Source: Antitrichia curtipendula
Lineage: Eukaryota > Streptophyta > Bryopsida > Hypnales > Leucodontaceae
Direction: 5' to 3'
Length of the DNA stretch: 64,000 nucleotides
Assembly: GCA_951230915.1 (NCBI GenBank)
Contig: OX579634.1
Coordinates: 45,149,570-45,213,569, forward strand
The notes under the pieces are model-generated. The model was not told the origin of the DNA and did no database searches. It saw nothing but the letters and a program-made list of their open reading frames with translations. The translations under genes were made by a program, and so were the position numbers. Within the stretch, counting starts at the first letter, position 1, and the number at the start of each line of letters is the position of its first letter. Below, piece by piece: positions 9,617-63,069 of this stretch.

Positions 9617-9648
9617 AGAATGCTGGTATGCGAGCGTGGAGTGTGGAG
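9617..9648 (+). repeat. Left terminal inverted repeat of the giant element
   Basis: Starts AGAATGCTGGTATGCGAGCG and continues with GTGGAG repeats. It pairs in inverted orientation with 63038-63069; mismatches fall at positions 3, 4, 5, 9 and 26. Degenerate GTGGAGCGG/GTGAGCAGGGA repeats extend to about 9690 and have counterparts at the other end. Confidence 0.8.
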
Positions 9649-9734
9649 CGGAGAGTGGGGAGCGGGGATTAGTGAGCGGTGAGCAGGGATTCTATAATTT
9701 TGGTGAATAACTTTTGAAAAATTAGATGACAGTA

Positions 9735-9900
9735 ATTGAAGAAGTGGATGAAAAGGTGGATTAAAAAAATGGATGAAAAAGTGGATGAAAAAGTAGATGA
9801 AAATGGTGGATGACAAAATAGATGAAAACGGTCGATGAAAATGGTGGATGAAAAAGTAGATGAAAACGGTAGATGAAAATGGTGGATGAAAAGGGGAAGG
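9735..9900 (+). repeat. Left subterminal GTGGATGAAAA-type array
   Basis: About fourteen degenerate copies of GGATGAAAA with GTGGATGAAAATG variants, all in one orientation. The reverse complement (TTTTCATCCAC) fills 62640-62860 near the other end. Such arrays often bind transposase, which is inference here. The Phe/His/Pro-rich frames they encode on the minus strand are not genes. Confidence 0.7.
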
Positions 9901-9965
9901 AAAAACATAATTAATAACATGATGAAAATAGTAGTTGAATAGAGCGAATTTCATAAATCCCTCCA

Positions 9966-10944
9966 AAAAGTGAGTTCATGAATTATATGATATTACATAC
10001 TCCATAAAGGCAGGGCAACCCTCCTTCTCATAATGGGGCAGCTAGTACAGCCTGCCTTGCCAACTTAGCTGGGCTGACACAGATAACTGCAGGCACCGCT
10101 TCAGCCATGCAGCACGATACAAAGCATTCGAAAATAGCTTTTCTGTGTACCCAGTGGCTTATCACTTTTTTGTTTTGAAGCGGCTTAATCCGAAGGGGAT
10201 TAAGGTATTGTTGGTTATTCAGGGATTGGGGGAGCTGCAGTAGCTCTCCAGAAGGTTGGGATCAATCTCGACGTAAAGGTGAGCGTGGAGATTGAAGAGG
10301 GAGCCCGTCGTTGCTTCCAGACTTGGTGGTCCATAACGAATTAAGAAGGCTATCTTGATCTGGACTATCACGATGTGAGACAATTAACAACACATGTCTT
10401 GCCCAATCTCACATTGCGATCAATTGCCACTGCGGTGCATAAATTAACTATGGCGAGATCCAATAAAAAAATGCCCAGCTACGAAGTGACTACTAAAGAC
10501 CCCTCCCGGTACGGGGAAGGGGCTTTGAAATGCGACTTCCAGGTATAGGAAGATGGAAGTGATTACTAAACACTGTCGTCTCTTCTCTTGCCAAAATTAT
10601 TCTTGCCAAGATAGTATAAAGAAGTAGTCGGGTAGACTCCTGTTGGGAGTGACATGTTTTGAAGACAATCTATCATCTTGCTAAACAATCCTCAAAAATT
10701 TGACTTCATTCTAGTATATATTCTGGCATTGGAGTACTTATTTGAACATGTCTTGTCCAATCAAACGTAAACACATACATACATCATCGGCTATTTGAAA
10801 GCACAAGACAATTTATGGAGATATAAAATATACGATGTATGGCGCCAAAATAAGTAGATAATAGTAGAAAACATCATAGTAATATAATAAATCAAATCCA
10901 ACAATAGAGGGCGTTAAAAAGGCTATCAAAAATCAAATGGATAG
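9966..10944. other. Left arm of the giant element
   Basis: Contains the DRM-like relic listed separately. Otherwise it holds only short unrecognised frames and the downstream flank of the ParB-methyltransferase gene. Confidence 0.4.
10178..10395 (+). pseudogene. Relic of a DRM-type (domains rearranged) cytosine-5 DNA methyltransferase
   Basis: From about 10217 one frame reads SGIGGAAVALQKVGINL, then VSVEIEEGARRCFQTWW, a TAA stop, and EGYLDLDYHDVRQLT. This matches the AdoMet-binding motif I and following motifs II-III of plant DRM enzymes (FSGIGGxEVAL...VSVEI...TNQ.G.L...DVQ.L), the de novo methyltransferases of RNA-directed DNA methylation. Just upstream, a stretch reading KRLNPKGIKVLLV is joined through a one-base frameshift. 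The catalytic PC motif is not found downstream. At least one frameshift and one stop make it non-functional. Homology is judged by eye. Confidence 0.6.
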
Positions 10945-13900
10945 CTAAAGCGCTGACATAGAGCTACCCTCACTATCAGAAGATTGAACATCAGACTCAA
11001 CTGCATGTTCATCTACAAATTCTAGAACGCGAGGATTCACGGATCGAGTTCTAGAAGTAGGCTGTGGGTCATGTGCAACATAATCCCGGGATAAAGCTGC
11101 TGCATACGGAGGGAGAACAAAGGGTTTTGGTGGGCTCTGGAAAAATAGTGGATTTGCAAAAAAAGGTACATCTCGGGAGGAACTCAATTCCTGGACTTGC
11201 CTGCACAAACCAATGAACAAAATGTTAGAGTACTACACCTTATGACAAATCAATATGTCTGAATTACTGAGCTCGGTCATCGACTTACTTACTAAATCGG
11301 AGTGTCTTCTGAACCTTCTGGATGATAACTTCCTTGTTCTCCTCAATTCCAAGGTCAGGCAGTGACCTTGGAATCTCCGCCGCAAGAACCACCGATTTCC
11401 GGAGTATTGGAGCTATAACGGCCTCGAAGATGCTCACATCCTCCTCAAAAGCTAGAATATGGCGACGCGTCGCACGGCATGCTTGGATGCTGGATCCTGT
11501 AGAACAAGAAATTAGACAATCAAAGTGGCATTGAGTATGTAAAGATCGACTTTGAATATGTAATGAAATTAAAATAACAAACCTGTTGCCGCTGTGCAGT
11601 CAACTACAACATCTCCTGGTGCAGTCGCTGCCTCAATGAGCATCTGCATAAACTCACATCCCTTTTCGCGCGGGCCACGCCATGGCACGTCGCCGTTCAT
11701 CGTGACATCTTCCTTGAAAACCAGATTGCGGAGGATGTCGTCCTTAGCGAGGTTAACACCCACCTTATCCTGGGACGGGACAAATTGAAAGGGAAATTCC
11801 CTTAGTGTCTTCGGCCCGGATTTCCGCACAAGTAGCGAGACAGAAAACCTCTGAGTCTGCAATTCCAACGAAGTCAATGTCAAGGAATGTGAAGTGGAAC
11901 TCATACAAATGGAGACAACTGAATGTAAAACTATAGAAAATTACCATCTTCTTCGGATCTGCGGCGGATGTCAAGTGAAGATGGTTTGTGCCAAAATATG
12001 TCTCCAATATACGAAAATCGTATTCCTGGCAGCATCCAAGAAGGTGGCTTCGATGTGCTGAAGACGACGCTGGGTAAATTACGAAGAGGGCACCATTATC
12101 GTGAAGGTACTGAGTCGCGAAGTCAAAGATAGGTACCAAGTAGTCAGATTTGAATTCGTTCCACTTTGGTACTGGAGCAGGTGCTGATGAGAGAGTAGGG
12201 ACGTGGAGTTCCTCGGGCACATCCACTATCATAAGGTCAACAGCTGACTCGGATCCCATATTTCCGTCAAAGGTGCGGTCTTTGTCATTGGAATGCTGCA
12301 ATATGCATACAATTGAGAAGTTAGTTAGTACAATATATCTATTATGAAGTTAATGAAACCACATCTGCATTATATAGGGAATTCTGTATGAAGTGAGTTT
12401 CCTGTGAAACATTCTCAAATCTAAGTCTAATCCAGCAATTTGAAGAGAAGATTTACCATGGCTAAGAAGGCCTCAATGTCCTCGAAGGACTTCGTTCCCA
12501 TCTCAAGATCCTTGAGTGCCATGTTCAGTATACACTCATCGATATCAGACCCCAGAATCATAGTCTTAGTTGACGGCGTCATCCCCTGCACCATGCGCTC
12601 CTGAGTGAGGGAGAATCCGGATGATGAAAGGTTGATGTTTGCTGCACTTGTAGCTGGTTCCGGAGCTTGGGTGATGTCCTTCTCTAGCTGATGCTTCTTC
12701 GTCCCCTTCCCTTCCCCTTTCTCAATTTGTCGCTTCTTCTTGTTCTCTTCGCCCTTCTTCTTGTTTAGTTCAGACTTCTTCTTGGCCTCCTCCAACTTGT
12801 CCACCTTTTTCTTGTTGGCGAGCTCTCGCTTTGCGATGGCCTTGGCCCTCGCCTCTGGTTCCAGTCCAGCAAATTCATCAAACTCCGCATCGGTCACCGT
12901 GGCCCCCTTCAGCGTCTGAAAGAGGTCCTCTTCTTCTGGTGGAGTAACGCCGAAGTTACACTCAAGATACCATGGACATGTCTGCAAGTGAGGACTTGTC
13001 CACTTTTGCAGTTGAGTAGTGGAGAACATGCAATCCGCTGACGACCGGTCGAGCCATGTAGTGAGAAACGGTGGTAAGTCCTCTTTCCTAATAGCCTTCT
13101 TGCCATACAACTCGAACTTGAAGTATCTATACACATCAGGAGTCGCTTCCGTCAGTTTGAATAATTATAAGAAACAAGAGAGTACTGAACATCTATATGT
13201 AACTGATAATAGATAACAAGAGGTCATAAAATCATGAGGAGGAAAACGAAGTGGTCCAACAGAGGACAACTACCATAATAATCCACAAACTGAGGCAATG
13301 TCCTACAAACAACATAATCTAGAACATGGACACAATACAAATTAGTTAATATGTATTAAAATGATAGTACTACCTGTAAATCAATCTCTTCGCCGTCAAG
13401 CTAGTTCCCCTGTACAACGCAAACCTGTCCGATTTCTTGAAGGCGTCCTTTCCCTTGAAGACCCCTGTGTAGGCTTGGTCCCATTGCTTCATCCGCCACG
13501 TCTCCAAATACTCTACTATTGTCTCGGGCTCACTCGGGGCGGTCATGTCAATTGGAATGCTGTCAGCGTAGGTGATGGTCTCAAACATCTCCGCAGCTGC
13601 CTCCTCTAGCTATAAAATACATAGTTTAGTCAGACCTTGTGTCAAATAGAGTAACCTACTTCAGAATGAATAATAATTAACTAAGTGAAAGGAGAACACA
13701 TTCGGCAATTTCATATTCAATCAAGTAAGGATCCTACCCCGGCGTAATAGGCAGCCTTGGCCAGAAAAATGCCCAGCTTTTCCTCATTCACTGGATGTGG
13801 AGGAAAGTGACGAGCTTCTTTCGTATGAGAACTCGCGTTCATCCATCTAAGCCATCTGACCTTGTGTCTTGGTTCCACGGCTGTAGTCGCAATCAGCTGC

Positions 13901-15289
13901 AGCTTCTCCAGTGTCAACTCAAGAACAGCATTGTGGCTCTAGTGGCTCTCAATCTGCAAGAGTCCGAAACTTAGAAATAATTCATGCATAAAATCAACAC
14001 ATGTCAAAATCAGTCACTATGTATTAAAAAGTTACAAACCTCTTTGAGCCAGTCCGGGGTAAGCTCTGGATTTGCGACCGCCACAATCTTTGAAAGCTTC
14101 TTGTAATGTCGATCGGTTGACCCTTTAATAGCCGCTCTCATTGTGGCAACGACATCCTCCCTGGTCACTTCCACTTCTTGATTTTCATCTCTGAGCTTTT
14201 GAATTGTGGCATCAGCTGCAGAGGAGATCTCTTGCTAAGAGGCAAAAGTCGTCACACCAATAATGAATACAAGGATTATAACGAGTACACTCGATATGAT
14301 TACACCGTGCATTTATCAGACAATGGATTGCATAAAAAATAATATTTCATACTCTAAAGATGAACCTAGTGAATATATGCAGGGGCATGGTATACCAGCT
14401 TGTCTGGGTGTGCATCTTACAGGTCTTCACATCCTCCTCAGTCAACAACTTCTGAAACTTATCAAGCTTCATAACCCCGTATTTCTGAACGCGATAGAGG
14501 GTATGCACAAGGTTCGTCTTGACGTGGGAGTTCTCTGTATGCCTGTCCATCCAAGTAACAACGACTTGTGAATGACAAAGTAACCATGTTAAATGCTATG
14601 ATCTATACCATGAATTCAATGTGATTACTCAAGTAAATAATAATATGAACTTACATGTTAATGTTGTGCATTGCTTGCATTGCCACCCCAATGCGTTGTC
14701 TTGTATCAAGGACAATGGAGTCCACACAAAAATGCCAAGAATGCTCTTGACTGTGCAGCCTCTCAATATGGTTCATCCAGGCTATGCGTCTGTGATTTCC
14801 GTCACAGACAAAGAACTTATAATCTATTAGATGCTTCAGAGATGGAATGGACTGCAACTGAGTATTGAAGGTGTCGTTTATCGAGTTCCAAATGGGACCC
14901 CACACACGCTTCTCCTCATCACTGAAAATCTCCGTATTTCCGTTCTCGTCAGAGTATGACACATAGAACACTCGAGCTCCTTCATCATAACCCCGAGAGA
15001 ACTGGTTGTCTAGAAGGGTCACGTCGCAAGTAAGCGTAGGACGAACCATTGGCATAGGCACCATCCTGCACAATGGAATTTTCATGCGTGAGTGTCCATC
15101 CGACGTCATCTTTAAACTGTTGATGACGGCCACCGTGTCGAATGATTGCACACGCCTGATGTCTTCCTCAAGAAAACAGGGCTCTACACCCGGAATGTAG
15201 TCCTCCGCAGGATCATCCTCTGCGTCATCGTGAATGACCTCATGAGCAGCTGTGTCGACATAGAGGCGATGAACACCTTCCCGCTGATC
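10945..15289 (-). CDS. ParB-like domain fused to a beta-class N6/N4 DNA-methyltransferase domain
   Basis: Eleven exons join with consistent phases: 15289-14655, 14542-14431, 14234-14040, 13953-13738, 13609-13374, 13302-13274, 13145-12457, 12295-11945, 11856-11583, 11496-11289, 11200-10945. They total 1067 codons. Exon one holds a ParB/sulfiredoxin-like signature (VCDGNHRRIAWM, about residues 155-205). A Lys-rich coiled region with likely nuclear signals sits near residues 570-630. A methyltransferase domain follows in beta-class order: motif IV position DLMIVDVPEE (about 723), then PASSSAHRSHLL, then motif X/I DVVVDCTAATGSSIQACRATRRHILAFEED (about 901-930, split by an intron). Such enzymes move a methyl group from AdoMet to adenine N6 or cytosine N4. 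The catalytic DPPY/W tetrad is replaced by DVPE, so activity is doubtful. One in-frame TAG (13939-13941) would truncate it unless splicing differs. The 5' end and the third donor are least certain. ParB-methyltransferase fusions are familiar in phages and bacterial mobile elements. Confidence 0.7.
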
Positions 15290-15456
15290 CTGCACCTTCA
15301 CGATTCAAATAGGCAAATAAGGGACAGCAAATGAAGTCATGATGAACGGATTCTCAAACATGTAAAATGAATGCAATGCAATCATAGATTCATAGTGGGA
15401 GCCCTGTAGGTTGCAACTAGGGAAGGCACTTTATAATGTAACCTAGCTAGTCATAT

Positions 15457-15894
15457 TCAGCAACAGGCCTCTGTAGGAAGACGGAACATCCCGCAACAGA
15501 ATATGAGGACGTTATTGTCAATGATCGGTCCAGAGTCAACATTGTGAGAGCAAGTACAATAGTCGACGCTATACTGCGGATCTGCAATTTCCATATCCCA
15601 TGACCCTAGTGACGTACAGCTAGACTCCTGCGGTGACATTGGTTCCTCAGCATAGAGATGATTCAGTCCATCATCAAGTTCACGGATGAGGTCTGTGAGG
15701 TCTCCTACCATATCCCCCTGCGCTTGATCTTGATGAATATCTTCGTCCACGACAGGAATCGGGTCGAGCACAGGAACAACGACTTCGGCAGGAATGAGGT
15801 CATAGTCCGGAACATCTGGAACCTGATTGGCCATTGTCTCTACTTCGTGAGCTGAAGCTTCCACCCCGTTTGTGCTCTCAACCTGCTCAACCAA
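15457..15894 (-). CDS. Possible acidic 5' exon of the ParB-methyltransferase gene
   Basis: An open stretch of about 145 residues lies just upstream of the ParB exon on the same strand. It is rich in Asp, Glu and Val (for example MANQVPDVPDYDLIPAEVVV, an ATG start at 15834). It could be the N-terminal exon, but I could not find a convincing donor in the phase needed to join 15289. No domain is recognised. Confidence 0.3.
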   Translation of the reverse strand: MVEQVESTNGVEASAHEVETMANQVPDVPDYDLIPAEVVVPVLDPIPVVDEDIHQDQAQGDMVGDLTDLIRELDDGLNHLYAEEPMSPQESSCTSLGSWDMEIADPQYSVDYCTCSHNVDSGPIIDNNVLIFCCGMFRLPTEACC

Positions 15895-16071
15895 TATTCT
15901 CGATTAGAAATATGTCTTGGATGCCTATAGACATCTGAAGTACATATCAAAAAATGGACACAACCGCAAACAAGCAAGGCACCCAGTTTTGGTCATCTGC
16001 GTTCAAACTCGTAGTCATCCGATTTAATATATATGTAGACAAGGATGCATAAACCCTCACAGTGAATACCC

Positions 16072-16490
16072 CCTCTCGGTACCGAGATGGTCCTGGACAC
16101 CCGGTCACGTATGCTTGGGGGCCGTAAAGACCCTGAGAATGACTGAGATCGGTGACCCAAGCTGAACGCGACAAAATCGAAACACCAGACCGGCAAGATC
16201 GCGGAGCCAAAAATAAAATACAAATCTGGGATCTCCCAATACCAGTCCCCAGCACTGGATCCAATACGAGTGGGGGAAACACAAAATGTCACGACAAGAC
16301 GTCAAAAACTGAGCTCATTAGGGCCCCTGTCCAATCCCTTCCCCGCACCGAGAGGGCTTTCCACACCCAGTGAGGTATGCTCGGGGGAAGCATACACGCT
16401 GAGTATGACTGAGATCGGTGACCCAAGCTGAACGCGAGAAAATCGAAACACCAGATCGGCAAGAATAAAATACGGACCCGTGCCCAATCT
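16072..16490 (+). repeat. Two tandem copies of an interspersed repeat (CCGCACCGAGAGGG family)
   Basis: Copies with core ACCGAG at 16081 and 16347 share ACACCC...GGTATGCTYGGGG, then GACTGAGATCGGTGACCCAA and AAAATCGAAACACCAGA. They lie about 266 bp apart. Related copies lie at 29290-29800 in the same orientation, with a similar internal spacing. The first begins with the palindrome CTCGGTACCGAG. No coding capacity. Family unknown. Confidence 0.7.
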
Positions 16491-16728
16491 ACGAGACATT
16501 AGAGAAAAATCGGACTCGCGAGAAGGCTGCCAAGAAGTGCTTTAGAGGACTCACGGATTACATTTATTTCTTGCATTCCAAAACTATTCCCCTATTTCTG
16601 CTCACCATTGGCGGGGGGGGTGATGAGTGCATACGGACAGTGAACGCAATTCTATTGGGTAGTACACCCGCATTGCCAAAGCCGTTGGTACAGAAGGATT
16701 CATATTTAAATGGAAAAGAGTTGTGCTT

Positions 16729-16843
16729 TTTACTGTTTTTTATTTGAAGAGATGTGTTTTTTATTTTGAAGAAATGTGTTTTTTATTTGAAGAGATGTGT
16801 TTTTTATTTTGAAGAAATGTGTTTTTTATTTGAAGAGATGGGA
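16729..16843 (+). repeat. Tandem repeat, alternating 22-24 bp units
   Basis: GTGTTTTTTATTTGAAGAGAT and GTGTTTTTTATTTTGAAGAA alternate about five times. Simple local duplication between cargo genes. Confidence 0.75.
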
Positions 16844-17426
16844 TGGTACAATTACCTTTGGCAATAGAATATTGGCAAGCTGAGTTGGCAACAAAATTTC
16901 ATGAACAGGGTCTGCATATTTTTGGCTACGCCTGGTCTCTTGTTTTCAACACTATTGAAGGAAATACAAAGAAGATTACCTGAAAATCCATGAGATCATG
17001 AGGTGTATTCTCCCAAATGCAAGACTGAGGCCTAATTCAGACAATTTCCTTTATAAGTGCTGCAAAGATTATAAGTGGCATTACATAAAAAGCGTTTGCA
17101 CAAAGAAAGTACTAAGATTGAACCATTCAACTGAGGATTGACGTTTACAGAAAAAGGCAACTGGATCTCCACCGTCGAAACCATTTCGAGCTGAGAACTG
17201 GAATCGGGAATCCCATTCTGAGACTTCACGGGAAGAGGGAATCGCATATTCATCAAAATGGAGAAAGGGAATCACCTGAAAAGCGAGGTTGGAGGAGGGA
17301 CGGAGCTTGTACTCAGTCCTGTTCTTCACGAGGGAGAAAATTAAACCTGAAGTAAATATTGAGAATAAATCTTCATGCAGCATCATCTTCATTTGCTGGG
17401 AGAGACTCTCGAGAGAGGTACCTTGA

Positions 17427-20400
17427 CTAAACTCTAGCACAACCATTTCGCCACTCTGCATGCTTCGCACTTCCTGATGATGCAAGATAAATTTGACGCC
17501 TCTTTTCTGTTAGCGCCCTAGCAGCTATCACGATTGGACTACTTGCTAGTGCCCTAGTTTTTTCTCGCTTGCACTCCCTCTCCTGGATCACATGATACCA
17601 CCATTGGAACGTCTGCACGATTGGGAGATGGTGTTGTTGAGTTCCAAAATGTTGGGTATGCTTTGTGTAAGTCGTTTTTGCCTCGTAGTGGCTTTTTTCC
17701 ATTCCCTGGGTTGACCAAACTGATATGCTCCCATACTTTGTAACAAACCAGGAGCTATGTTTCACTATGACATGCTGCCAAAATCCAGATGAGAAAAAAT
17801 ATTAATATAAGTTGTATTGCAAAACATCAATGACAATATGGTAACTTGCAATTCAACAAACAACAATGCAATTATGTGAAGGAAGAATAAACAATTATAC
17901 TTACAACATAATGCGTAACAGAGCCTTCCCCCAAAGCAGCCATGTATGCTTTGCCCCATCGCTCGACGATGCTTTTGTAGGCCCTTTGTTGTGTTGTACT
18001 CAAGAAAAAGCCAGATGTCTTTCTTTGACTAGGTTTACTCATACATTGAAAGTATGGCAAGAGTTCTGTGAATGCCAACCACACCTCTTGGCGTTGAACC
18101 TTTGATTGCCCTTGATTTGTGTTGTTCCTTTCTGCATCACAAACATCTTTCCACACCGTGTCAAAGGTAGACCAAGTCGAGGGTTGAAACATTTTCCGAC
18201 ATTTGGAACCATTGAACGAGAGCTTGGACGGCAGGTCAGAATTTGCTCCTGATAGCTTTGGGTCTCGCGTTAGAACAACAAATCCACCACAAATCCCAGC
18301 TTTTGACAACACTTTTTCCATTGCCGCCACAACTTCCTTCCTCTCTGTCGGGTCCTTGATGAGCCAAACGTACAAAATTTGCAAGTGCACAATTTTTTCA
18401 ATGACACGGCACATTGCATGAAGAGTGCAGAAATGGACAAGCTCAATGGGAATCTTAAGAATCGGTGCCCATTTGCCATCCCCATTTGGGCCACCATCAG
18501 GGCCTCGACTTGGCTTTGCTTGAATTGATTTAGAAAACAACCCCCCATTCCATGCTTGTTTGTGCCGCCATGGCTCCACTGATTCTAATGCTGAGAGTTG
18601 TCGCTTCTCCCCTTTGCTCTGCCAACAATACATGCAGGAATGCAATGAATTGGCACCATGAGAAAACCCATATAGGCATTTGACCGTTTTCATGTCACAG
18701 GCCAAATGCCATTCTATTGAAAACTCCCCTACATTCTCCACGACAAGCTTTTTGCCAGATGATTGAGCCTCTATAACTGCTGGAATGGGAGTTTGTTCCA
18801 AAACCCATTTCAAACATTCATGTGACTCTTGCACCACTTGAAACGTGCCTATGGGCCATATTTCCCTTTCCGATTGTACCAAGAAGAATTTGGGATCACT
18901 TTTGAGCAAATTTGGATTGTTGAGCGCTCGATTCATGATTGTAATTGCCATCCGCTCTTGCTTTTGTCCCTTTATTATTTCTGCCTCGTCCATTTTGAGT
19001 ACAAAGACGAGGGGCCCTACACCAACCTCTGCAAACATTTGAATGGACATTGAATAAACTTGAAAGAAAAAATAGCCAAATTGTAATATAAAGGATTGCA
19101 TGCAATGGCGTGAAGGGGCGACATATGAAGTCAAGTACCTTCTATAGTGAATTCATAGTGCTTCACCATTGATTGTTGTACAGTTAGCAAATCTACAAAC
19201 AAATTATTGCCTGGGTTGAGGTGCAAATGTGTTGGTGTTTTACGCTTCTTTGGGTCTTCATTGAGGCTAACAGGAACCTCCCACGAGTTACTAATATGGA
19301 AGTATTCACCTACATAGTCTTGCAACTTGGAATTAAGTTCAGTCCTCAGCATGCCCACCTGTAAATTCCCAAGCAAATGTAACAAGAATAACTATAAGCA
19401 CAATTTTGCAACCATGAAAACAATACAACAACAATCATAGAATAAGTCAAATTAATGCAAGAAGTATATGCAAAATCATAAAGGGGAGTTGTGGCACTAA
19501 CACGGAAAGCAGTTGGCATGAATTTGAAATTCAAGTTCTTATCAACTTGGCGGACACCATTCTTCATAATTTGGATTAGTTTGTTGTACCCTGCATGCGG
19601 GACTCCATTCTCATCTTCAACAGACAAGATCTCATGAGCATCCACAATATCACCTACCGCTTTGAAGTGCGCATTTGTTATGCCAGCAGCCACCTTCCGA
19701 AACTTTGGAGCCGCCATCAGGGACTTTGCCTCGCCCTGTGAAAAGATTTCACTTAAGACAGCACCTGTGGCACTTTGCTCCTTGCTTGCACCACAGAGTC
19801 TCTTGCATGTGCCATTAAGGGTATTAGCTGAGCGGATGGCAGAGACTGTCTCATAGTAAAGGAGCTCCCTAAAACAAAACAATAGTTGATTCAATCAACG
19901 TCAATTTTACATTAAAATTGAGAAAGTGAATTGCAGGGCATTCTTGGTGGGCTCACCTGAGTTGTGCCTTCACTTGTTTCGCCCGGCCACCTCCTTTGGC
20001 TAAATTTGAAAGGTTCTTCTTTTTTCGCCCTACAATCTTAGAACCTCGCAATCTTGCAACCTGCAAGTTTGAAACGGCCAAGTCATTCTGACTTGTGAGA
20101 AGCTCGAGCTCCAAATTCTTGATCCGTGTTTCATAGTTAGCTTTTAAGCGTTCTGTTTCCTGTGAAGTGCTTGCTCTTGCATTCTCCATGTCGATGTTTA
20201 CCTCTACCAAATGCCGAGCCTTATCTTCGATGTGCATAGAAATCTCTGCATTTAACCTTCGGAGCCGCATTTGGTAGGCTACATCTACGTCGTGCAAACG
20301 ATCTTCCTGTGTCGCTGAAAGGTGCTGAAATAAAAACCTGTCGTGAGCCCGTCCCACCCTCTCTGCTTCAAATCTCGATTCTGCTTCTTCCTTCGCAGCG

Positions 20401-20528: not shown

Positions 20529-20834
20529 GTCCCGGAAGGTAGGTGGCTTTTGTGTAATAGGATTTTTGGGATAAACACTCCCATCAAGTCAAATGTCAAG
20601 GTTTGTGTCTCCTGCTTTCCATTTGGCTTGGAATTCAGATCGAGGTGCCTGGTCCAAAAGCTTGTGCCCACGAAGAATTGCAGGGCGATACTTTGCAGGA
20701 ATTACACAGCTTGGACTATAGGAACCCTCGGGCTTGTAAGCATTTGATATTTCACCCAAAACCATCTGGGCGTGTCTGCGCAGCTTCCGAAGATGATTGC
20801 CAAAGTGAACTACAAAATTTGAAGAAGACCCCAA

Positions 20835-41710: not shown

Positions 41711-41732
41711 TTTGTGAGCGTCCTCGCAAACA

Positions 41733-47408: not shown

Positions 47409-47418
47409 GATTTTTGTA

Positions 47419-48741: not shown

Positions 48742-48746
48742 TCCGC

Positions 48747-51293: not shown

Positions 51294-54200
51294 ATGAGGG
51301 GAGAGCAGCTTGGAAACGCTTATCACATTGAGAGAAGAGTGGCTGAACGCCAAGGCATTCGTAGTTACCCGTGCGGCTGTGAAAGATGTCATGGATTTAA
51401 GAGACAGGCCGCTCGAGTGGTCGAAAGGCACCACCTAAAATATGGTCGAGATCAAAGGCTGCAGCAACCTCTTGTGGTAAGTTCAGACGACATTACTTAT
51501 TACGCTTTGACTTCATATTTGTAGTGGTCCTTCTCCTCCAGGTTCCGTTATTTACAGCTGTTTCTGATGACGTTGTGAATTGAACATTCAGAATTGACAT
51601 TCAATTCGGAATTGCAATTCTTCGTTGAGAAAAAAAGCACGTCGTCACACCTTCTGCATAGTGCTATATATGACATTCCGTCCACTGTTCCTACAATTTC
51701 CTCAAGCTTTTCCTTCCTTTATAACTTCGAGGAAAGGTCATACTTTTTGTTGCAGGGAAGTGAAGGCCGGTACGCACAGTCTAGCAGCAGTGGTTCTCCT
51801 GTTGAAGATCTCCCTGGCAATGAAGATGAGTTCTTTGACGCAGAAGTTCTTGAAGATTTCGAACCTACGGCTCCAAACACTGACGTGAATTTCGAAGAAA
51901 TGACCCACAATTACTTTGCACGAGTGGACGAAATTCATCGGCAAATCTCAGAAGACGAAGACGCTCCTCTAGATTTTGAAGACATTTCATCCGAGGCAGA
52001 AGAACTTGATGACAATAATGTTCTGGAGGAATTACTCCAACAGTCGACGGAACCTCTTTTTCATGGGTCAAGCACCAGCAGGTTACAATTCAGCATCATA
52101 CTCATGTCTTTATGCACATTATTTTCGGTGAGTCATCACTGTTTGGATGAGCTCTTGACATTTCTCAAGCATGACGTTTTGCCGCCGAACAACAACTGCC
52201 CTAAGAATTCATATGAGATGAAGACATTGTTGATGAAGCTAGGCCTTTCCCATGAGAGTATTCATTGTTGTGATTGCGGGAAAACCTTGTATTGGCAGGA
52301 AAATGCGCAGTTAGATAGATGTCCACACTGTCTAAAATCGAGGTATATAGCAGGCTCTCACTCAGTTCCACTTTGAGTACTTAGGTATTTCTCTTTGATT
52401 AAGAGGTTGCGAAGAATGTTCCGGTGCCCGTCTTTGGCTAAGCATTTGAAGTAGCACTCAACCAACCACTCACAAGATGGAAAAATGAGGTCCGTTGTGG
52501 ATAGCCAGCAGTAGAGTTTTGTAGATGAACGATATCCAGATTTTGCAAGCGAGGAAAGGAATATTCGAATGGGATTGGCATAGGATGGAGTGAATCCATA
52601 CAGTCTTCAATCTTCAAAACACTCTGTCTGGCCCGTCCTCATGGTATTTTATAACTTACCACCTTATCTTGTGACGAAGCGTTTCTTCATTTGTTTGACA
52701 ATGATTATTTCTGGCCCTAATTCGCCATCGGAACACACAATTGATGTTTACTTGGAACCACTAGTACAGGAGTTGGAAAAATTGTGGGTTGGCATTCCAG
52801 CTGTTGACATGTCAACACCACCAAGTCGTACTCCTCACTTCAGATTGCGTGCCCTTCTAATGTGGACCATAAATGACTTCCCCGCTTATACACTGGTGTC
52901 CGGACAAGTTGGTAAAGGCTATGCTGGTTGTCCAGTGTGTGGCGAATTCACTGTTGCAGATTACTCTACGGCTGCAGACAAAACAGTGTTTCTCGGTCAT
53001 CGACGGTGGTTATTACAGAATCACAGGTGGAGAAATGCACATGCAGCCTTCAATGGCCAGTCCAACCATGATCCACCACCACCACGACAATCAGGTATCA
53101 CTGTAGTTCAGAGAGGTGCATGGAGAGAGTCATTTTTACAATGTGGAGGACGGGCAAATTCGAAGGCAGATCCCGTGAAGACAACTGGAGTGAAGAGAGT
53201 AAGCATATTTTTCCGGTTACCTTATTGGCAGGTGAAATTTCTGTTGCCTTCCCGTTTCATTAGATTTCCTGCAGAAGTGAGAGGTCATGTTCACCATTTT
53301 TCCTTATGATTATTAGTTCGTAAGTTGATGCTCTGAAGTTAGTAATTTGAAGGGAACATAGTATTTGATTCTAGTGCCTCGTCATTGTCCAACCACAGAA
53401 GGTCATGAACTTCTTGGAAAATGAATAGCGTCCATAGTAGAACATCCATGTCATAGTAATTACATTTGAAACCCTTTTTTTTTCCCTGCCGCGTCAACAA
53501 TCTACAAGTTTGCAGTAATCAGTAATTGCATTTATGATTCCTGATTATATGAAGTTAAAAGAGTATTTTAAAATAATTCCAAATGTTTGTTTTCTTCGTC
53601 CATTAAGTCCAAGGTTTGCACATCGCTGAACTTGTTGTAAGGGTTGTTTTTACCAAAAAATTCTCGATACCTATCACTATCATGTGTGCTCTGCAATTAC
53701 GTATTTCATTATTTATGTTCATCAAATCTTGGAGAGAGCTTTGTTACTGCCATTTTTGTGGAGTGGCAAAATTGTATTAACTAATTCTGTGACTATGACA
53801 TCTTTTCTTTTACTATGTACGTAGTAGACACTGCAGGTGACACGGCGTACGTAGCACTTTGTTTCTTCAGAAACAATGTAAGAGCAGCTCTGAATTTTTG
53901 GAACAATTACTATACTTCTTTAACTTTATGTGTTGTGGTACTCCAACCTCCGCAGGACCTTCCAATACGTCACACACTGGACCCGATGCATTGTGAGAAG
54001 AACATCTGTGATATTCTTTTGCGCACACTACTGGGAGAAACGGATGGACCCAAATCACGAGAGGATCTGCGAGCAAGAGGAATTCGTCCACACCTACACT
54101 TGCAAGCAAATGCAGACGGTCGAACGTTTTTCATGCCAGATGCCCCGTACGTTCTCAACAAAGAAGACAAGCAAGTTTTCCTGTCTACAATGAAAGACTT

Positions 54201-56594
54201 GAAATATCAGACGAACTACGTCAGTAATTTGGGCGCTAGAATTCATGAGGGTAAACTTCAAGGAATGAAGACGCATGATTTTCACGTTTTGCTTCAACAG
54301 GTCCTTCCATTATCACTGCGGAACGTATGCGATGAAAAATTTGTAGGAGCAATTATGCGTGTTAGCAGATTGTTTCGTAAAATATTTGCTAAGCTGGTTG
54401 ACGTTCAACAGAAAGAGAAAATGCTTCAAGATGTCGCAGAAACTTTATGCACACTGGAAAAAGAACTTCCGCCGTCAATTTTTGTCATCATGTTGCACCT
54501 TCCAATACATTTGGCAGAAGAACTCTTCATGTGCGGTCCTGTTCATACGCGCTCAATGTATCCATTTGAGCGATTCCTGAAGGGTCTAAAAGGGTTTGTG
54601 AAAAATAAGACAAAACCAAAAGGAAGTATGGCATATGGATACATGAGAGAAGAGTCCATTGGATTCATGAATGAATACCTCCGTGAATACAATGCGACAA
54701 CTAAGCGTGCATGGGACGATGCGGAGGAGCCAACGATGTATGATGAAATATTAGAAGGAGCAAAGCGAGATCGACTAATGACTCCTGAATTTCAAAAACT
54801 AATTCATGGTTTTGTGTTGGATAATACGGTGCACATGGAGCCATATAGGAGGTACGTAATTGTGACTATCCTTACCCATCTCATTTCCTGACAAGTTGAT
54901 TCGTTGCTCCGTTTCCGTTTTCATTGAAACTGGCAATTTCTGTATTACTGTCATTTTGAATGGGCCACTTGAAGTATTGATACTATTGTAGTTGAACTAC
55001 AAAAAGGCAGAGTTCGAACCAGTATCATTTGAGGACGTGCAGATGTCATACTAGAAGTTTGTAGTGACTAACAACATGTTTCACTACTAAGAGAAAATTC
55101 ATGTCTTTATTTACTGATTATTGAAGTTGCTGTGAATGTCATACCGAACTAGAATTACAAGGCGATTATGTAGTTGGCAGAGTCCACAGAAATCAATGTA
55201 CACAGTCGTTTACGTAGAGAGTACTTCAAATTTTTAAACGAGGCAGTACTAAGTTTCGTATAGTCCAAAATTGGATAGAAAATTGTTGAGAAAAAAATTG
55301 ATTCTTACCTTGTTCAATTTTGCAAATGCCATGTAGGAGGTATACAGAACGTCTAGAGCAACGGCAGCATGAGAGGGAAAATTACCGCCGCCAGCAGCGG
55401 AGACGAGGGCGTCGGAATCGATTTGCCTACCCCGTGGAGCTCAGCCAACTACCAGACTTCTGTGATTGGGTATTGCAAGAAGTTAGGATGGAGCGACAGG
55501 AGGGTGTGAACGTTGATGCAGAGGTAATGGACACCGCAAGAGGTCCGTTACCTGTTGCGGCCGCGTACAGAGGAATGTACGCATATGGAAACCACTACAG
55601 AGTTTTGAGTTCAGAACAAGGTATGAGAACAGCAAACAGTGGAGTCTCTGCAACATTCAAGCAGCTTTGTGAAAATGGAATCCGAGATGTCAACCAGGTG
55701 GACGCTGATGTCGAATACGTGGGACACATAGAGGAGATTCTTGAATTAAACTATAGACGACATTGTCTAGTTGTTCTAGTTTGTGACTTCGTGAAAGCAA
55801 ACTACTTTGGCGACAATGCCACAATCAAAAAGGATAGGTGGGGCTTCACTTTAGCAAACTACACTAGGAGAAACGGGAACATTTCTCGAGACAGCTTTGC
55901 ATTTCCAGTGCATTGTGAACAGGTATTTTATTCGCAGGCCAATGAAGCACCTGGATGGCGAGTTGTGCTAAGGAAAGAGGTGAGAGGAAGAAGAGTACTA
56001 CCCGATGACGTGAATGATGTGGAAGCAGAACTATTTCAGATGGGTGAAGACGACGATTTTGAAGGACTTCGACCGGAGAGAGAAGTGGGAGAAGATGAAC
56101 TACCAACAGCACGCATAGGTCACAATATTATTTTGGAACCTCTTCGGCCGCCACGGAGGCACATGGGCAGCGCTGCTGGAAGACTGAATAGTAGACGTGC
56201 GCATTGTAGGACCGCTGGACGTGGCATCTGTGTGGGGCGAAGACATCCAAGAAGATCAAATACTGCTGCACAGGAAGGCCAGTTCTCAGCTAACCAAGAT
56301 GAACGAGAAGAGGAGGAAGAATTGTACAGAAACAATGGCGTCAGTGGGAGTGCAGGTCAAACTAGAAGTAGAGATGGGAGCACAAGTCTTCACCACAGAA
56401 GAGTTCGCCGGAGACCTGAAACGGTGGATGTCATGAACACCAGGGAGGAAGTTTCAAGAGACCACGGAAACATCAGTCTTAGCTTGTCAGCCACGTCGTC
56501 TTCTCTAGAGAATTCACAATCCATCTCAAGCAGTGAGGCAAGTTCCACTCCGTTTGTGTTGTTTTCTAAGGCTGAGAAGGTGCTGTTTGTCTAA
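51294..56594 (+). pseudogene. TNP2-type CACTA transposase with DUF4218 and DUF4216 regions, broken by four stops
   Basis: Exons 51294-51476, 51756-53231, 53956-54851 and 55337-56594 join in phase to exactly 1271 codons. This is the catalytic transposase of plant CACTA elements. In order: a Cys/His transposase-associated segment (YPCGCERCHGF...ERHHLKYG); an acidic linker; the TNP2 core (EPLFHGSSTSRLQ, ELLTFLKHDVLPPNN, CPHCLKSRY, GPNSPSEHTIDVYLEPL, ALLMWTINDFPAY, CPVC, FFRLPYW, TLDPMHCEKNICD); DUF4218 (LPIHLAEELFMCGPVHTRSM, YPFERFLKGLKGFVKNK); and DUF4216 (CDFVKANYFGDNATIKKDRWG). Stops in exon 2 at TGA 52374-52376, TAG 52452-52454, TAG 52512-52514 and TAG 52581-52583 end any product early. At two of the TAG sites relatives usually have Trp, so G-to-A changes are likely. 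The C-terminal tail is Ser/Arg-rich. Confidence 0.88.
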
Positions 56595-59004
56595 AAATGA
56601 ATCTTAGTAAGAGTGCATTGACAGAAGATGGAGAAAGGATTCACAATTTCCAAGAAAATTGTGAAGTGGTTCTTGGTTACTTACATGAGGTCCACTACCT
56701 AGCTGTTTTCGAGTCCTCTGTGAAAGAGAAGTCGATGGGTAGGTTCTGTTGAGTGGAGAGAAATGTAGTGTTTAGGAATGAATTGTTGTCTGCGAAGTTT
56801 GAGTTCGATTGATGAAGTCTTCGGCTAGTGTGAGCAGAACTTGATGTACGTGTAGGATTGGTTTGAGTCTTTCACGTACAGTACACAACGACGACCAACC
56901 AGAAGGTTGAACAAAAAGTGGAAATTGGGGGGGGGGGCACAAAGAAGTTGGATGCATTGCTTCTAACACAAAGCACAGAACGTGGACTGCAGTTTTGAAA
57001 CTGAGGAGTGCGTTTTTTTCCATAAAATACAGGGAGAGTGAAAGCACTTAGGAAGACAAGAAGTTGATGCATTCCTTTGGAGTGGTATTTAAAAGGAAAG
57101 GAAGGTGAAGATGAGTTTGTCAAACAATGTATTGGTATGTGTCAATTACAGAGAGGCCTCATCCATTAATTAAATCACGTAATTTGTCGTCACGCTTGGA
57201 GATGTTGTATTTTTTTCATGCAGTGGTTTAAAGTGAGTATGAAAAAAATTGTATTTGTCCACAGCATCAACGGTAAAATCTTACGTTTGTATTTCTGGAA
57301 AAACTAAACTGTCCACAGTAGACTTTCTGCTCATTATGAGGAAACAGAATAAGTGGAGGAGGAACTTCTTTGCATTGTTGGGTAGGACCACTCTTAAACT
57401 GAATTGTTTTTAAAGATTAACAAAGTTACGTTAGTTTTGTATGACTACATGTATTGTGTACCTCTTACTAGCAGGGTTGTCTACAGATACAAGTCTGTGG
57501 ATGTAGGTTTATTAGCGGAGGAATTCTAGAGCATGTAGTCCAAAGTAGTAAGGAAAATTCTTGTATTGCTGTGGAAAATCAAGTAGTATTCAGTTTTGAT
57601 TGGAAGAGTTCAAGTGGGAAGTGAGGACTTCGATTTCAGTGGATTTATTGAAAAAACGAATTGGATCATTTGCTTGCAGTCGTTAGTACTCGTGCTTTGG
57701 AGTGAAAGCATTTTGTGAAGGTACTATGGCTACATGTGTGCACGGAAAGTTTTGTTCAGTAATTTGCAGGAAGAGCATGTATTCGTTTTTCAAATTGAAA
57801 AGGAGTACATCATTTTAATTCAGTTTTTTCATGTTTCATTGTCATGCTAAATGAAAACTGAGTTAGCATTAGAACTTTGACAATGTCGTACGCGAAGTCG
57901 CTAGGTATGTTGTTACCCTTATATCGAAGAAGTTATTGCTTTTTTAATTTTTTGTATGTCAAGAGTGCATTGATAAGAACGGTCGAATGTGATTGTCATT
58001 GACTACAGTAATTGTAGTGTTGTTCGTGATGGAGTTGGACGCAGACCTTGTAGTTAATAAATTTGTGAATGTCTGCAGTTGCAGACATTATGAAATAGTA
58101 GTTCCGATCAGCACATGCAGGAGTGAATTACTTACTATGAAGTCGACTTTGAAAATGAAGGAGGCCCTGTAAATGCAGTTGCTGGTAGCGCCCGTGGAAG
58201 TCAGTAGCGTGGTAGTGCTACCTTATTATTGGCAAGGTGAAGTCCAACATTTTTGTGCTGATTTTCACTTTGAAGATGAACTCGTAGCTTAGTTATTGCT
58301 AATTTGTTTTGGCAAACGTGGGGTGTAGAGACCGTTGTCATATTTTTCAAACATGTTTGTCTGACAAGTGAACAGCAATCCAAAGTAGGAATTGGAAGAG
58401 AGTAAGAGTGCTGAGTCCTGTAGATTAAGTTATCCGTGAACGTGTCCGTCATATTCATGTGAAGAGGGAAAGACCTCACACGACGAAAACGGTCGCGTGG
58501 ACTGCTTCTGGAAGTGTATGATTACCTCATGAAGTCTTCTCTCTCACTCTGGATAGTCTATGCATTTTTGAAGTATGTAACATGTACATGTTTAAAAAAA
58601 AGTTGACCTGATATAGTTGACCGAGGTCTGTGCATACTGTCCACAGTGTTTCCCTACTTTCGTAATGGGTCATGACAGTGGAAAATATTGGGGACATCAT
58701 AAAGCCACCGCTATATAACAGCTAGTTTCCCTACAGCAAGTGACTTAGGTATAACAGTAGAGGAAAAAGAAGTAAAAAATGCGGAGAAAGTCGTCTGCAC
58801 TAAGAAGTAATCTGCACTCAAGTTTGTAGTGGCAGTAATGCTTCGTAGTCATGTGAGAACTAGAAGAGGGATGTAGAAGCTACTGGACATGGATTCTTCG
58901 AAAACGTGCATGCAGATAGATGTCCTCTTTTGACATACCAAGAGCTGAATTCTGTTGTTTAACCTGATGAAGACATGGACCCTTGAAAGCAGGGACATCT
59001 GGAA
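56595..59004. other. CACTA non-coding interior
   Basis: No coding region supported. It contains a run of 11 G at about 56929-56939 and otherwise no repeat structure I can define. Confidence 0.4.
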
Positions 59005-59520
59005 TCATGTTTCGCTGCTGCCAACGCCCTCCACCAAGTAACGAGAGTCCTGTCGATTCCACTTGGCAATGTGTGAGACATGGAAGCAAGACTCGCCAAC
59101 CAACTTGAACTTCAGACGGTCCCCTTCCTCGACGTGGTGACGACGGGCGAAGTCACCCCAACCAGATCCAAAAGAGACTCGATGCTGTCGTTCGACGAAG
59201 CACACTTGAATGTTCACTAGCGAGGAGGGCCTTCTTTCCCCGTACCGTAGACACGCTTTTTGACGTATTTTGTTTCCGTTGCTGCCAATGAACCAAGGTG
59301 GGATAGTCTGGAGAAGCAAAAAATGTACAGTTAGTTTGAGGTCTGCTGTACGAGATGAAAACGAAGACAATGTTTAGCCAAGGAGAAGCAACTAACCAGA
59401 CAAACGAAGGATGTGGATTTCATGGTCTTTTCAAAGGACCTCTCCGGCGTCGGACCTGTAACAGCTGAAGTCAACATGCTGGTAGTGCTACTGCTATTGA
59501 CTGGTGCTTCGCAGCGTCTG
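59005..59520 (-). CDS. B3 DNA-binding-domain protein inside the CACTA element
   Basis: Two exons are clear. The upstream one ends at 59397 (RSFEKTMKSTSFVCL, donor GTTAGT); the downstream one runs 59307-59005 after acceptor TTCTCCAG. Joined in frame, they give the B3 pattern: SFEKTM...IPPWFIGSNGNKIR, ACLRYGERRPSSLVNIQV, RVSFGSGWGDFARRHHVEEG, DRLKFKLVGESCFHVSHI. B3 domains are plant-specific DNA-binding folds found in ARF, ABI3 and REM factors; this looks closest to the REM group. The N-terminal start is uncertain; the frame stays open to 59714 but its composition there looks non-coding. It may be a captured host gene fragment or an accessory gene of this CACTA family. No lesion is seen in the domain. 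Confidence 0.65.
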
Positions 59521-61476
59521 TAGGATCTTTCAGCAAGAGAACAAGAAATTGGCAACAGATATGGCGGAAGCAAATTAGCAATGAGTTGGAAGACTACACT
59601 GTGGAAGAGGAAGGTGTTCATCATGTACATGGGGAATGCTGTGGATGTACGAGAGGTGGTGCCATTAATTGTAGAAATCGTCTGAATATTTAGATTATAA
59701 GTATTTCTAAGCATATCTTTGAAGAAATGCTAATCATGTGTGCTTAAAATTGCATTTCAGGAAGAGTCAGGGGATTCATGAATCTGAGATTCACAATGGA
59801 GAAGTCTGTTCGAGTCTGGTAGATTACAACGACAGTCACTGGAAATTGGGTAAGCCTTGATAATTCTTGTATTTTGAAGCTCAATTCTGATGCATCTTCG
59901 TTTCTTAGTGAGTAGAATGGATTTGTGAAAACACATCCGTATGTTTGGGATGTGATACGCTCTTGTTTGGAGGAGTCTCTGATTTCTGTCAATGATGCAT
60001 GGGACAACAGAGGCTGCATCATGGAATGCAGTTTAACCTGTATCTGCATTGTCGTCGTAGTTAATCTGTTTGAATCTTGATTGCCAATGATTACCAGAAA
60101 TCTCAAAGTACTTGAGGGCGGTTTATTATCTGTCATTAAGTGAAGGCGACAGAGAAGGTTTGTCTTAGTAGTTATAAATTAATGACGTTTGATAGTTTGG
60201 AAATGTCTTGTCGTTGTGATTAAAGTGTATATGAAGGTAAAAGAACCGTGAATTTGCATCCTCAAATTAGCGTCTAATTCAGTAAGGAGTTCCAAATTAC
60301 TATTGTTTGAACCAGAAATGAACATTTCTAAAGGTTGAATTTTCTGGGAGAGCAATGACATGGAAACGAATATGTCTACAGAACTCAGTTGTCACGGTAC
60401 ATGTTGCAGTAGATTTCTTTAGAAGTGCAAGTGCATGTTAAATTCATACTGTAATCTACATTTTGTCTGTCTGTGAAGGTTTGTTGTGGAAGCATTCAAA
60501 TGAACTCAGTGGCTACTGCTGAAAAAGGAATTCTGGCACAGCAGCATTTTTTCAGTGGGGCAGGAGGCGAAAATAGGTAGAGATAAAGTGAACAAGTTGA
60601 AGACGTCAATCAATTATTGAAATTTACAAGAGGAGGTGAGAAAATTCATTGCAAGATGTGATTGTTACAAAAATGTGCACTTCTAATAGAAGTTATTATT
60701 GTACTAGCTATCTATCTAAGTGCCTATTAGTAGTGGAGGTTTACTTAAATGGCTTTGTGGCATACTCTGTATCGTAACACCTCATGTTGGCTAGGTGGAG
60801 CAGCGTGTAAATGGACCACGTGACAACGGCGGCAATTGCAAGTTCTGGTAAAACTCTATGGAAAATGGAGCTTCGAGGGAGCAAGACAGCAAGTGAAGGA
60901 CTTCAACGCGAAAGATAACGCCGACTGTATTTGTTGATTTCGGGAGTCCTGGACTGTTCTTTATCTAGAATTAAACGTCTGTAAGTATGAGTTCAGTACT
61001 GGTAGAAATTAAGGCTTCGAAATTAGATATCCATTTCTGAAAGGGAGGAAAAAGGGACACAAATGCAATAGAGATGTTGGAAGAAGAAGTCGACCTTGTT
61101 ATTGTTCATGTGTTTTTCAATTTAGTGTACTCTGAGGAATGAAGAAACGTCTGGGAACGTGAACCATGACTACTGGGAAAAAATAGATGCATTCAAACTG
61201 TGAAATGTGGAAGGTCCTCTGTCCTCCCTTGCTTCTTCAGTGTCATACAACGTTGGCCAAATTTTTGTTGTGTTTTTAAGAGGAGAAATAGTTTTAATTT
61301 TTCCATGTAAGCAAAGCAAGACAGAAACTGGGAACCTTATTGCTAATTGTTTGTATTATTTTTTTTTTGTTAAATTCATTACCAAATCTATCAATCAGTC
61401 AACCGCTTTTCATCCATATAGTGATTATTTTATTCATAAACAACCGCGGAACACAAGCAGTCCAATACGATAAAAA
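59521..61476. other. CACTA right non-coding interior
   Basis: Short minus-strand frames at about 59744-60136 are open but unrecognised. The region may hold the promoter of the B3 gene. Confidence 0.35.
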
Positions 61477-61549
61477 ATTGACAGGAAAATCAACAAACTA
61501 ATGCTATATTGACAAGAATAAATACTAATCTGATAGCTCTTGTCATCTT

Positions 61550-61601
61550 AGACAATTTTCCGTCAAAGTTTTGTCATCTTGACTCTGTTTTCCTCGTAGT
61601 G
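61550..61601 (-). repeat. Right CACTA terminal and subterminal repeats
   Basis: Inverted partner of 35121-35172. Subterminal TTGACAGG, TTGACAAG and TTGTCATCTT motifs extend left to about 61477. Confidence 0.85.
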
Positions 61602-61604: not shown

Positions 61605-62600
61605 TTCTATAAAATTGAATAGTGAGACTACAAGGGCCACTACTTCCGTACAGTATTTGTCATTGTCTTTCATTGCAGATGTGCTTATATTGTCAAGAAT
61701 GACTGCTTTACGTCTCAAAGTAGGTAATGAATTGACATTAGACGTATTTCTACTTTCATTTAGTCGGATCTTATCCCTTTCTCAAACCCTGAACCCGATG
61801 TTTGCGGAACAAGTGTTGCTGTACAAAACAAGAATGAATTTTGTAGAGAATTGGCCTCACAAATTCACAGGGCCGTCAATGACTTTAAAATCCCAATGGT
61901 ATTAAATAGAGATGAGGTCTATTATTATAAAGATGCCTAAATCCACCCTTCCGTCCACCACGGTTATAGGAGGCCCTATTACCATGGTCGTAGGCACCAT
62001 ATGATTGAAGTTTCCATTTATACACCATAACTAATAATGACGCTAAATATATTATGTTTTTAGTATAGCTAAACTTTTTCTAAGTCCTCACCCTAAACAT
62101 CCCTTTCACATCACTACATCAATTTATGCATGAATTATCTTCAAATGAATCACTTGTTTATCTAATTGTTTCCCCCCCATATTTTGCATAGATTTCTTAT
62201 ACTCCCATGTATTTTGTCATCAAATTTAGTGCAATCTTAAACCGCAATGCCAATGAATGTTGCATCGAGTGTCATCCAAATTTTTTTGCCGCATTTATCC
62301 ATTTGTTTTATTTCTATCATTGAATTTGTTCCACCGTTGCCACCCCATTTACCAGCTTCTTACGTACATACTAACCCTAAACTTGCTTGCACCTATATGT
62401 TTGAACCTCTGTCACCTAGTTTTCCATCTATGATGACTTAGTCATGTTATCCGGAGTCATCCATTTTTCCGTCCACGTTCATCCTTCCTTTCATCCCATT
62501 TTCATCTACATTCTTTCATTTATTCTACCACCCTTCATAGAATGTGTCGTCACTTGTCATCCAAGCATTTGAACCTTAGTCTTCCAATTCGTCCTCCACA
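61605..62600. other. Right arm of the giant element outside the CACTA
   Basis: Continues the giant element after the CACTA. An open frame at 61615-61905 (96 residues) matches nothing I know. No other gene is seen. Confidence 0.4.
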
Positions 62601-62639
62601 TCCATGAAAATCTGCCACATACATTCAAATTTTTGGACA

Positions 62640-62860
62640 GTCCACAGTCGTCCATCCTTTTTATACTCATTCATCCATTTTTGTCATCCACAGTCATCCA
62701 TCATTTTCATCCACAGTCATTCATCATTTTCATCCACAATCATCCAATTTTCATCCACATTCATCCAACTTTTCCAACCACAATCATCCAAAATATTCAT
62801 CTCGGGACATCCCGATTTTTTCATCCACATTCATCTAATTTCTGACAATTTCTTCATCCC
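62640..62860 (-). repeat. Right subterminal TTTTCATCCAC-type array
   Basis: Many degenerate copies of TCATCCACAGTCATCCATCA and TTTTCATCCAC; read on minus they are GTGGATGAAAA, matching the left array in inverted orientation. Looser copies extend toward 62460. Confidence 0.7.
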
Positions 62861-63037
62861 ACTTTTCTGAATTTCTCATCCATTTTTCATTCCATTTTAT
62901 GAAAATTTTCATGACTTCCATCAATTTTTTTTAAAAATCCCGTCCATTTTTCCCAATCCTTTCCAAAATCCCCGCTCCCTGCTCACCAATACACGCTCTA
63001 TGCTCTACGCTCCACGCTCCATGCTCTACCCTCCACG

Positions 63038-63069
63038 CTCCACGCTCCACGCTCGCATACTAGCTACCT
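63038..63069 (-). repeat. Right terminal inverted repeat of the giant element
   Basis: On minus it starts AGGTAGCTAGTATGCGAGCG and then repeats GTGGAGC. It pairs with 9617-9648. Degenerate GTGGAGCGTAGAGC repeats and GTGAGCAGGGA continue inward to about 62965. Confidence 0.8.

What the first reader, a model, noticed from the sequence alone, without database searches (positions are those of the whole stretch)
9617..63069. A 53.4-kb terminal-inverted-repeat element explains almost the whole window
At both 9617 and 63069 an inverted repeat sharing GCTRGTATGCGAGCGTGGAG abuts a near-identical 14-mer, TGCATCRCCAATGG. Outside these points lie the two halves of one gene, which is hard to explain except by one insertion. 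Even without its nested CACTA the element is about 27 kb, and it carries several non-transposase genes. It may represent an undescribed family of large gene-carrying MULE-like elements.
Basis: partly seen in the sequence, partly recalled or inferred. Interest (0 to 1): 0.95.

Follow-up and report, generated by a model that had tools for sequence, protein, structure and literature searches.

The report
Nested Mutator-like transposon with methyltransferase-like gene
A jumping gene of the Mutator type landed inside a related one, was itself hit by further insertions, and carries a bacterial-style ParB and DNA-methyltransferase-like gene that may help it handle its host's silencing.

Summary
The insertion is real: one element, 9614-63071, split a related element's transposase gene. 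Ten copies (this one included) with both ends found in the same 400-Mb genome share its termini; three of three fetched uninterrupted paralogues read through the junction. Two details need correcting. The target-site duplication is 9 bp (CATCRCCAA, 9605-9613 / 63072-63080), as in Mutator-like elements, not 14. The element's own DNA is 14,260 bp: besides a CACTA (35121-61601, holding a Gypsy retrotransposon), a third, 12,717-bp element (16497-29213) is missing from four relatives. The transposase matches no Pfam MULE model, but its predicted core is weakly closest to the ISCth4 transposase. An oppositely transcribed second gene has an exon whose model resembles ParB/sulfiredoxin folds, then exons faintly like N6/N4 DNA methyltransferases with a degenerate catalytic motif. 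The ParB exon lies 4.7-8.7 kb inside 22 of 35 left ends. Such ParB-methyltransferase genes are reported from an Ectocarpus Sola transposon and, by citation, green and red algal transposons, so this is a new variant: the same accessory pair in a Mutator-like lineage. Its function is inferred.

The parts
7321..7400 (+). Probable left terminus of the outer, older related element (CAATGCTAGTGTGCGAGC plus GAGCCTGGAG array)
   Evidence: no convincing right end in the 40 kb fetched to the right
8589..9613 (-). Outer element's transposase gene, C-terminal part with CxC...CKH (SWIM-like) motif
9605..9613 (.). Left target-site duplication CATCACCAA
9614..9703 (+). Left terminal inverted repeat of the inner Mutator-like element (about 90 bp, degenerate)
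9737..9904 (+). Subterminal tandem array (GTGGATGAAAA type)
10216..10402 (+). Decayed fragment of a DRM-type cytosine methyltransferase, longer in four relatives, with shared stop codons
11569..12349 (-). Own gene 2: N6/N4 (beta-class) DNA methyltransferase-like exons; motif IV reads DVPE, motif I DCTAATG
12427..13164 (-). Own gene 2: lysine-rich exon, open in 5 of 6 copies seen (in c5b in two pieces)
14651..15304 (-). Own gene 2: ParB/sulfiredoxin-like exon (DGNHRRIAW)
15457..15903 (-). Own gene 2: acidic upstream exon (likely)
   Evidence: no homology test
16068..16496 (.). Own repeat array, about 266-bp units (continues at 29214; greatly expanded in copy c8a)
16497..29213 (.). Nested 12,717-bp element with 13-bp perfect inverted ends CATTAGAGAAAAA; missing from four relatives, three of which read straight through; no clear TSD
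31385..35075 (+). Own transposase gene, broken by stops and frameshifts; GCM-like N-terminus, D/D/E core, CxC...CKH C-terminus
35121..61601 (+). Nested CACTA element, TIR CACTACGAGG, TSD CTT, Transposase_21
40374..48742 (-). Ty3/Gypsy LTR retrotransposon inside the CACTA; LTRs 99.85% identical over 1324 bp
62641..62903 (-). Subterminal tandem array at the right end
62982..63071 (-). Right terminal inverted repeat, ending ...CTAGCTACCTTG
63072..63080 (.). Right target-site duplication CATCGCCAA
63081..64000 (-). Outer element's transposase gene, middle part (continues past the window; P0001 homology reaches about position 66053)

Best explanation
The window holds a Russian doll. An older Mutator-like element (left end about 7321) had its transposase gene split by one insertion of a younger relative (9614-63071) with a 9-bp target-site duplication. 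That element has about 14.3 kb of its own DNA: degenerate inverted ends with GAGCGTGGAG and GTGGATGAAA arrays, a (+)-strand DDE transposase with a GCM-like N-terminus, and an oppositely transcribed second gene with a ParB-like domain and an N6/N4 DNA-methyltransferase-like domain, plus a dead captured DRM fragment and a 266-bp repeat array. It was later inflated by a 12.7-kb element and by a CACTA that holds a Gypsy retrotransposon. Shown: ends, TSDs, nesting, copies, empty sites, gene positions, and (with weak scores) fold resemblances. Inferred: the transposase binds the ends and cuts with a 9-bp stagger, cut-and-paste; the ParB-methyltransferase-like protein binds the element's own repeats and marks, or reads a mark on, them, perhaps to blunt silencing or assist transposition. 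That the ParB and methyltransferase exons form one gene is inferred from order and strand.
Confidence: 0.93

Rival explanations
1. A different transposon superfamily with a 14-bp target-site duplication, as the finding implies.
For: The 14-mers are 13/14 identical and abut the inverted repeat.
Against: In all 10 pairs read the repeat is 9 bp in one register (within one base in c8a); the extra TG and TGG are the element's own ends (...CCTTG / TGGGGAATG) meeting similar flanks.
Confidence: 0.03
2. A genuine 27-kb cargo element: the 16.5-29.2 kb region is the element's own gene load.
For: It lies between the element's ends; six of the ten end pairs are 20.4-53.7 kb apart, and only two of those six (the window and c8a) were read inside.
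Against: Three relatives have the uninterrupted array at that point, and the region has its own perfect 13-bp inverted ends. Four of the ten pairs are 14.8-15.9 kb apart.
Confidence: 0.07
3. Assembly artefact or rearrangement joining two transposon fragments.
For: The region is repeat-rich; no reads could be examined.
Against: A matching 9-bp duplication, in-frame restoration of the split gene and empty paralogous sites are not expected from misassembly.
Confidence: 0.02
4. The ParB and methyltransferase parts are passive captured passengers without function for the element.
For: Degenerate motif IV; stops in some copies; a captured DRM fragment beside them is clearly dead.
Against: Homologues aligned at 43-67% identity with 19 invariant columns, 150 scored exon matches in this genome, dN/dS 0.19-0.28 between more distant copies, conserved position relative to the left end.
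Confidence: 0.25

Closest known systems
Mutator-like elements (MULEs), SWIM-bearing groups (PMC6446971, passages read)
   Same: 9-bp TSD, degenerate TIRs, DDE transposase with SWIM-like C-terminus
   Different: No match to Pfam MULE models; the parts of the group table that I saw list no ParB or DNA methyltransferase gene; own length about 14-16 kb
Sola1-1_Ec32 of Ectocarpus (PMC12477816, passages read)
   Same: Large DNA transposon with a ParB-like plus N4C/N6A methyltransferase gene antisense to the transposase
   Different: Sola superfamily in a brown alga; here the TSD and, weakly, the transposase are Mutator-like
VANDAL elements with VANC anti-silencing protein (PMC10398659 and PMC5735166, starts of abstracts in a listing; PMC13317346, passages)
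   Same: Mutator-like element with an accessory protein that may act on the element's own noncoding repeats
   Different: VANC was not compared; no anti-silencing activity was tested here
Bacterial ParB-methylase fusions, e.g. Bacillus cereus Bce_0392 (PMC5512222, passages read)
   Same: ParB domain plus DNA methylase
   Different: Bacterial protein; here the parts lie in exons of a eukaryotic transposon and the catalytic motif is degenerate
Pack-MULEs (PMC6431247 and PMC13317346, passages read)
   Same: Carries a captured host gene fragment (DRM)
   Different: Has its own transposase gene and is longer than the 7-kb maximum quoted for Pack-MULEs

Membership tests
Mutator-like superfamily | 8-11 bp target-site duplication | tested here: met
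   9 bp in the 10 pairs read, 84-85 of 90 positions matching, one pair only 6/9
Mutator-like superfamily | Terminal inverted repeats | tested here: met
   About 90-bp degenerate TIRs in 5 of 5 copies aligned
Mutator-like superfamily | DDE transposase of IS256/MULE type | tested here: inconclusive
   RNase-H-like model (pLDDT 78.7, pTM 0.50), ISCth4 first in Foldseek and VIA but weak. D in MFDH, D in MADSAQANW, CxxH and E in NLxE read by eye; the motif names and ISCth4's IS256 family are recalled
Mutator-like superfamily | Match to a MULE transposase profile | tested here: inconclusive
   No Pfam MULE match at E<=5 nor in 10 homologues at E<=1; non-detection does not exclude membership
Mutator-like superfamily | SWIM zinc finger | tested here: inconclusive
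   CxC...CKH present; PF04434 E 0.29
ParB/sulfiredoxin fold (gene 2, N-terminal part) | ParB/Srx alpha+beta fold | tested here: met
ParB/sulfiredoxin fold (gene 2, N-terminal part) | Sequence match to a ParB profile | tested here: inconclusive
   Pfam on the 55 sequences of A3 at E<=1: no ParB family; PDB profile search: no ParB chain at E<=5
N6/N4 DNA methyltransferase, beta class (gene 2, C-terminal part) | PF01555 profile | tested here: inconclusive
   E 0.039, 14.3 bits against cut-off 26.7, matching the motif-I end
N6/N4 DNA methyltransferase, beta class (gene 2, C-terminal part) | Catalytic motif DPPY/SPPY | tested here: not met
   DVPE in the window, c5a and c2b, DVLE in c8a; so not filed as an active methyltransferase. 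The motif is recalled
Pack-MULE | Captured host gene fragment | tested here: met
   DRM-like fragment: DRM2 chain 7l4h E 6.4e-6, DNA methyltransferase chain 4onj E 3.5e-8; in the window and four relatives
Pack-MULE | No transposase gene | tested here: not met
   Transposase at 31385-35075
VANDAL with VANC | VANC-type anti-silencing protein | not tested
   No VANC sequence was compared

The most novel reading that the evidence does not exclude
A Mutator-like lineage, large in this genome and present in others, has made a bacterial-type ParB plus N6/N4 methyltransferase-like protein a fixed second gene. ParB loads on the element's own repeat arrays, and the methyltransferase part marks them or reads a mark, so that the element steers its own chromatin; this convergently matches Sola and other algal transposons that hold the same protein pair.
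Probability: 0.35. Interest if true: 0.78.

Novelty: new variant of a known kind. Interest (0 to 1): 0.5.

Why it matters
If the same ParB-methyltransferase pair serves unrelated DNA transposon superfamilies, it is a general accessory module, and how transposons act on host silencing becomes testable through one protein. The locus also gives a clean order of nested insertions and shows how a 14-kb element can look like a 53-kb giant.

Tried and rejected
14-bp TSD: rejected by ten copies. 27-kb own cargo: rejected by relatives. A 9-bp TSD for the 12.7-kb insert, suggested by overlapping alignments, was dropped: the repeated TACGAGA is already in the uninterrupted relatives. Pfam scans of frame translations with X at stops found nothing. 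PDB searches with profiles A1, A2 and A3 and with the ParB exon alone gave no meaningful hits. The ORF family A2 (17872-19152) stays unassigned. No convincing right end of the outer element in 40 kb: a scan for the 14-base core with up to 3 substitutions gave four weak minus-strand matches past the window, not followed; no ParB match there either. Copy c5b's right end was not found in the fetched 30 kb, so it is not among the ten pairs. Two more same-strand end pairs, 91.6 and 107.3 kb apart, were left out as doubtful.

Paper searches for a ParB or methyltransferase gene in MULEs: (listings). Of the papers opened, only PMC12477816 (passages) describes a ParB-methyltransferase gene in a eukaryotic transposon. 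Subscription papers are mostly absent from the library; Iyer 2011 and Petroll 2025 are known to me here only through its citations.

Full report
OBSERVATION. The inverted 20-mer lies at 9622-9641 (+) and 63045-63064 (-), with a third, weaker copy at 7330. The 14-mers at 9603-9616 and 63070-63083 match at 13 of 14 positions. As a free pattern with 2 mismatches the 14-mer is not rare in 64 kb (3 matches, 0.89 expected, 7 of 100 shuffles with at least 3); at fixed positions none of 200,000 random pairs reached 13/14 or the 19/20 inverted match, and 28 reached 8/9. The ORFs outside are parts of one gene: the right part aligns with residues 18-144 (53% identity) and the left part with residue 143 onward of the homologous transposase ORFs inside the element.

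ENDS AND TSD. The window lies at C2:45149570-45213569 of an unnamed 400-Mb genome in 303 contigs. A left-end query gave 49 rows: the window itself, 28 starting at 9611-9618, 5 covering only the flank, 15 starting further inside. A right-end query gave 52 rows: the window itself, 6 stopping at 63071-63074, 1 at 63082 (copy c5a), 14 covering only the flank, 30 stopping inside the variable arrays. Both searches scored only the best 40 first-look candidates. Merged by place these are 35 left and 26 right ends; pairing by strand gave ten pairs under 60 kb, 14.8 to 53.7 kb apart. The ends of all ten were read. Each has a 9-bp repeat outside NGGRGAATGYTRG... and ...CTAGCTACNTTG: 9/9 in six, 8/9 in three (the window's CATCACCAA/CATCGCCAA, c5a, c8a), 6/9 in c6. 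I set the register by eye; with a one-base shift c8a is 9/9, which is the version counted (85 of 90, against a mean of 2.07 per 9 and a maximum of 6 in 90 non-cognate pairs). The 14-mer is therefore the 9-bp TSD plus TG and TGG, where the element's own ends happen to match the neighbouring flank.

EMPTY SITE. The joined flanks with one TSD copy align to three of three fetched uninterrupted paralogues (C2, C3, C6) at 84.7-85.9% over 443-489 columns with 0-4 gap positions, and read in frame through the site. A left terminus at about 7321 suggests that the split gene belongs to an outer, related element; its transposase homology continues to about 66053.

NESTING. A CACTA with TIR CACTACGAGG and TSD CTT occupies 35121-61601 and encodes Transposase_21. 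A Gypsy element with LTRs 99.85% identical lies inside it. Four relatives (c5a, c2b, c8a, c8b) match the element before about 16464 and after 29213 at 95-97% in the long blocks but lack the part between. Three of them read straight through the point; the insert has 13-bp perfect inverted ends, 12,717 bp and no clear TSD. The element's own DNA is thus 14,260 of 53,458 bp. Four of the ten pairs are 14.8-15.9 kb apart; c8a is 25 kb mostly through expansion of a 266-bp repeat array; the four pairs of 20.4, 28.5, 39.8 and 40.2 kb were not read inside.

DRM FRAGMENT. 10216-10402 (+) resembles plant DRM cytosine methyltransferases (chain 4onj, named DNA methyltransferase, E 3.5e-8; DRM2 chain 7l4h, E 6.4e-6). 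Four relatives carry a longer version with shared stop codons, hence an old, dead capture.

KNOWN SYSTEMS. MULE TSDs are 8-11 bp, and SWIM-bearing groups are common (PMC6446971, passages). [quoted passage not shown] VANC proteins of Arabidopsis VANDALs counter silencing (PMC5735166 and PMC10398659, starts of abstracts; PMC13317346, passages). Cytosine methyltransferases were taken up by retrotransposons (PMC5890265, passages). The new point here is this accessory pair in a Mutator-like lineage; I saw no report of it in the listings.

VERDICT. The 53-kb span is a nested stack around a 14-kb Mutator-like element; what raises interest is its ParB-methyltransferase-like gene.

Noticed in passing
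window 16497-29213: A 12.7-kb element with 13-bp perfect inverted ends and no clear TSD; its ORF 17872-19152 (-) belongs to a conserved family (13 homologues) without Pfam or PDB match.
   Followed up: partly
L020-L022 joined (C8:25218090-25248089), local 8178-19076: About 10 kb of ~266-bp tandem repeats expanded inside a relative of the element, a candidate target for the ParB-like protein.
   Followed up: no
window 63645-63772: A 128-bp foldback (87.5% complementary) in what looks like an intron of the outer transposase gene, possibly a small MITE.
   Followed up: no
window 2232-3272: An ANTH-domain ORF on the minus strand left of the outer element (PF07651, E 3.4e-38).
   Followed up: no
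window 40374-48742: Gypsy element with LTRs 99.85% identical, so a recent insertion; its 5-bp flanks read TCCAC and TCCGC if the LTR ends at 48741.
   Followed up: partly
genome G000: 150 listed ParB-like exon matches fall in several identity bands (55-100%), many with open frames, so several subfamilies of such elements probably exist.
   Followed up: partly
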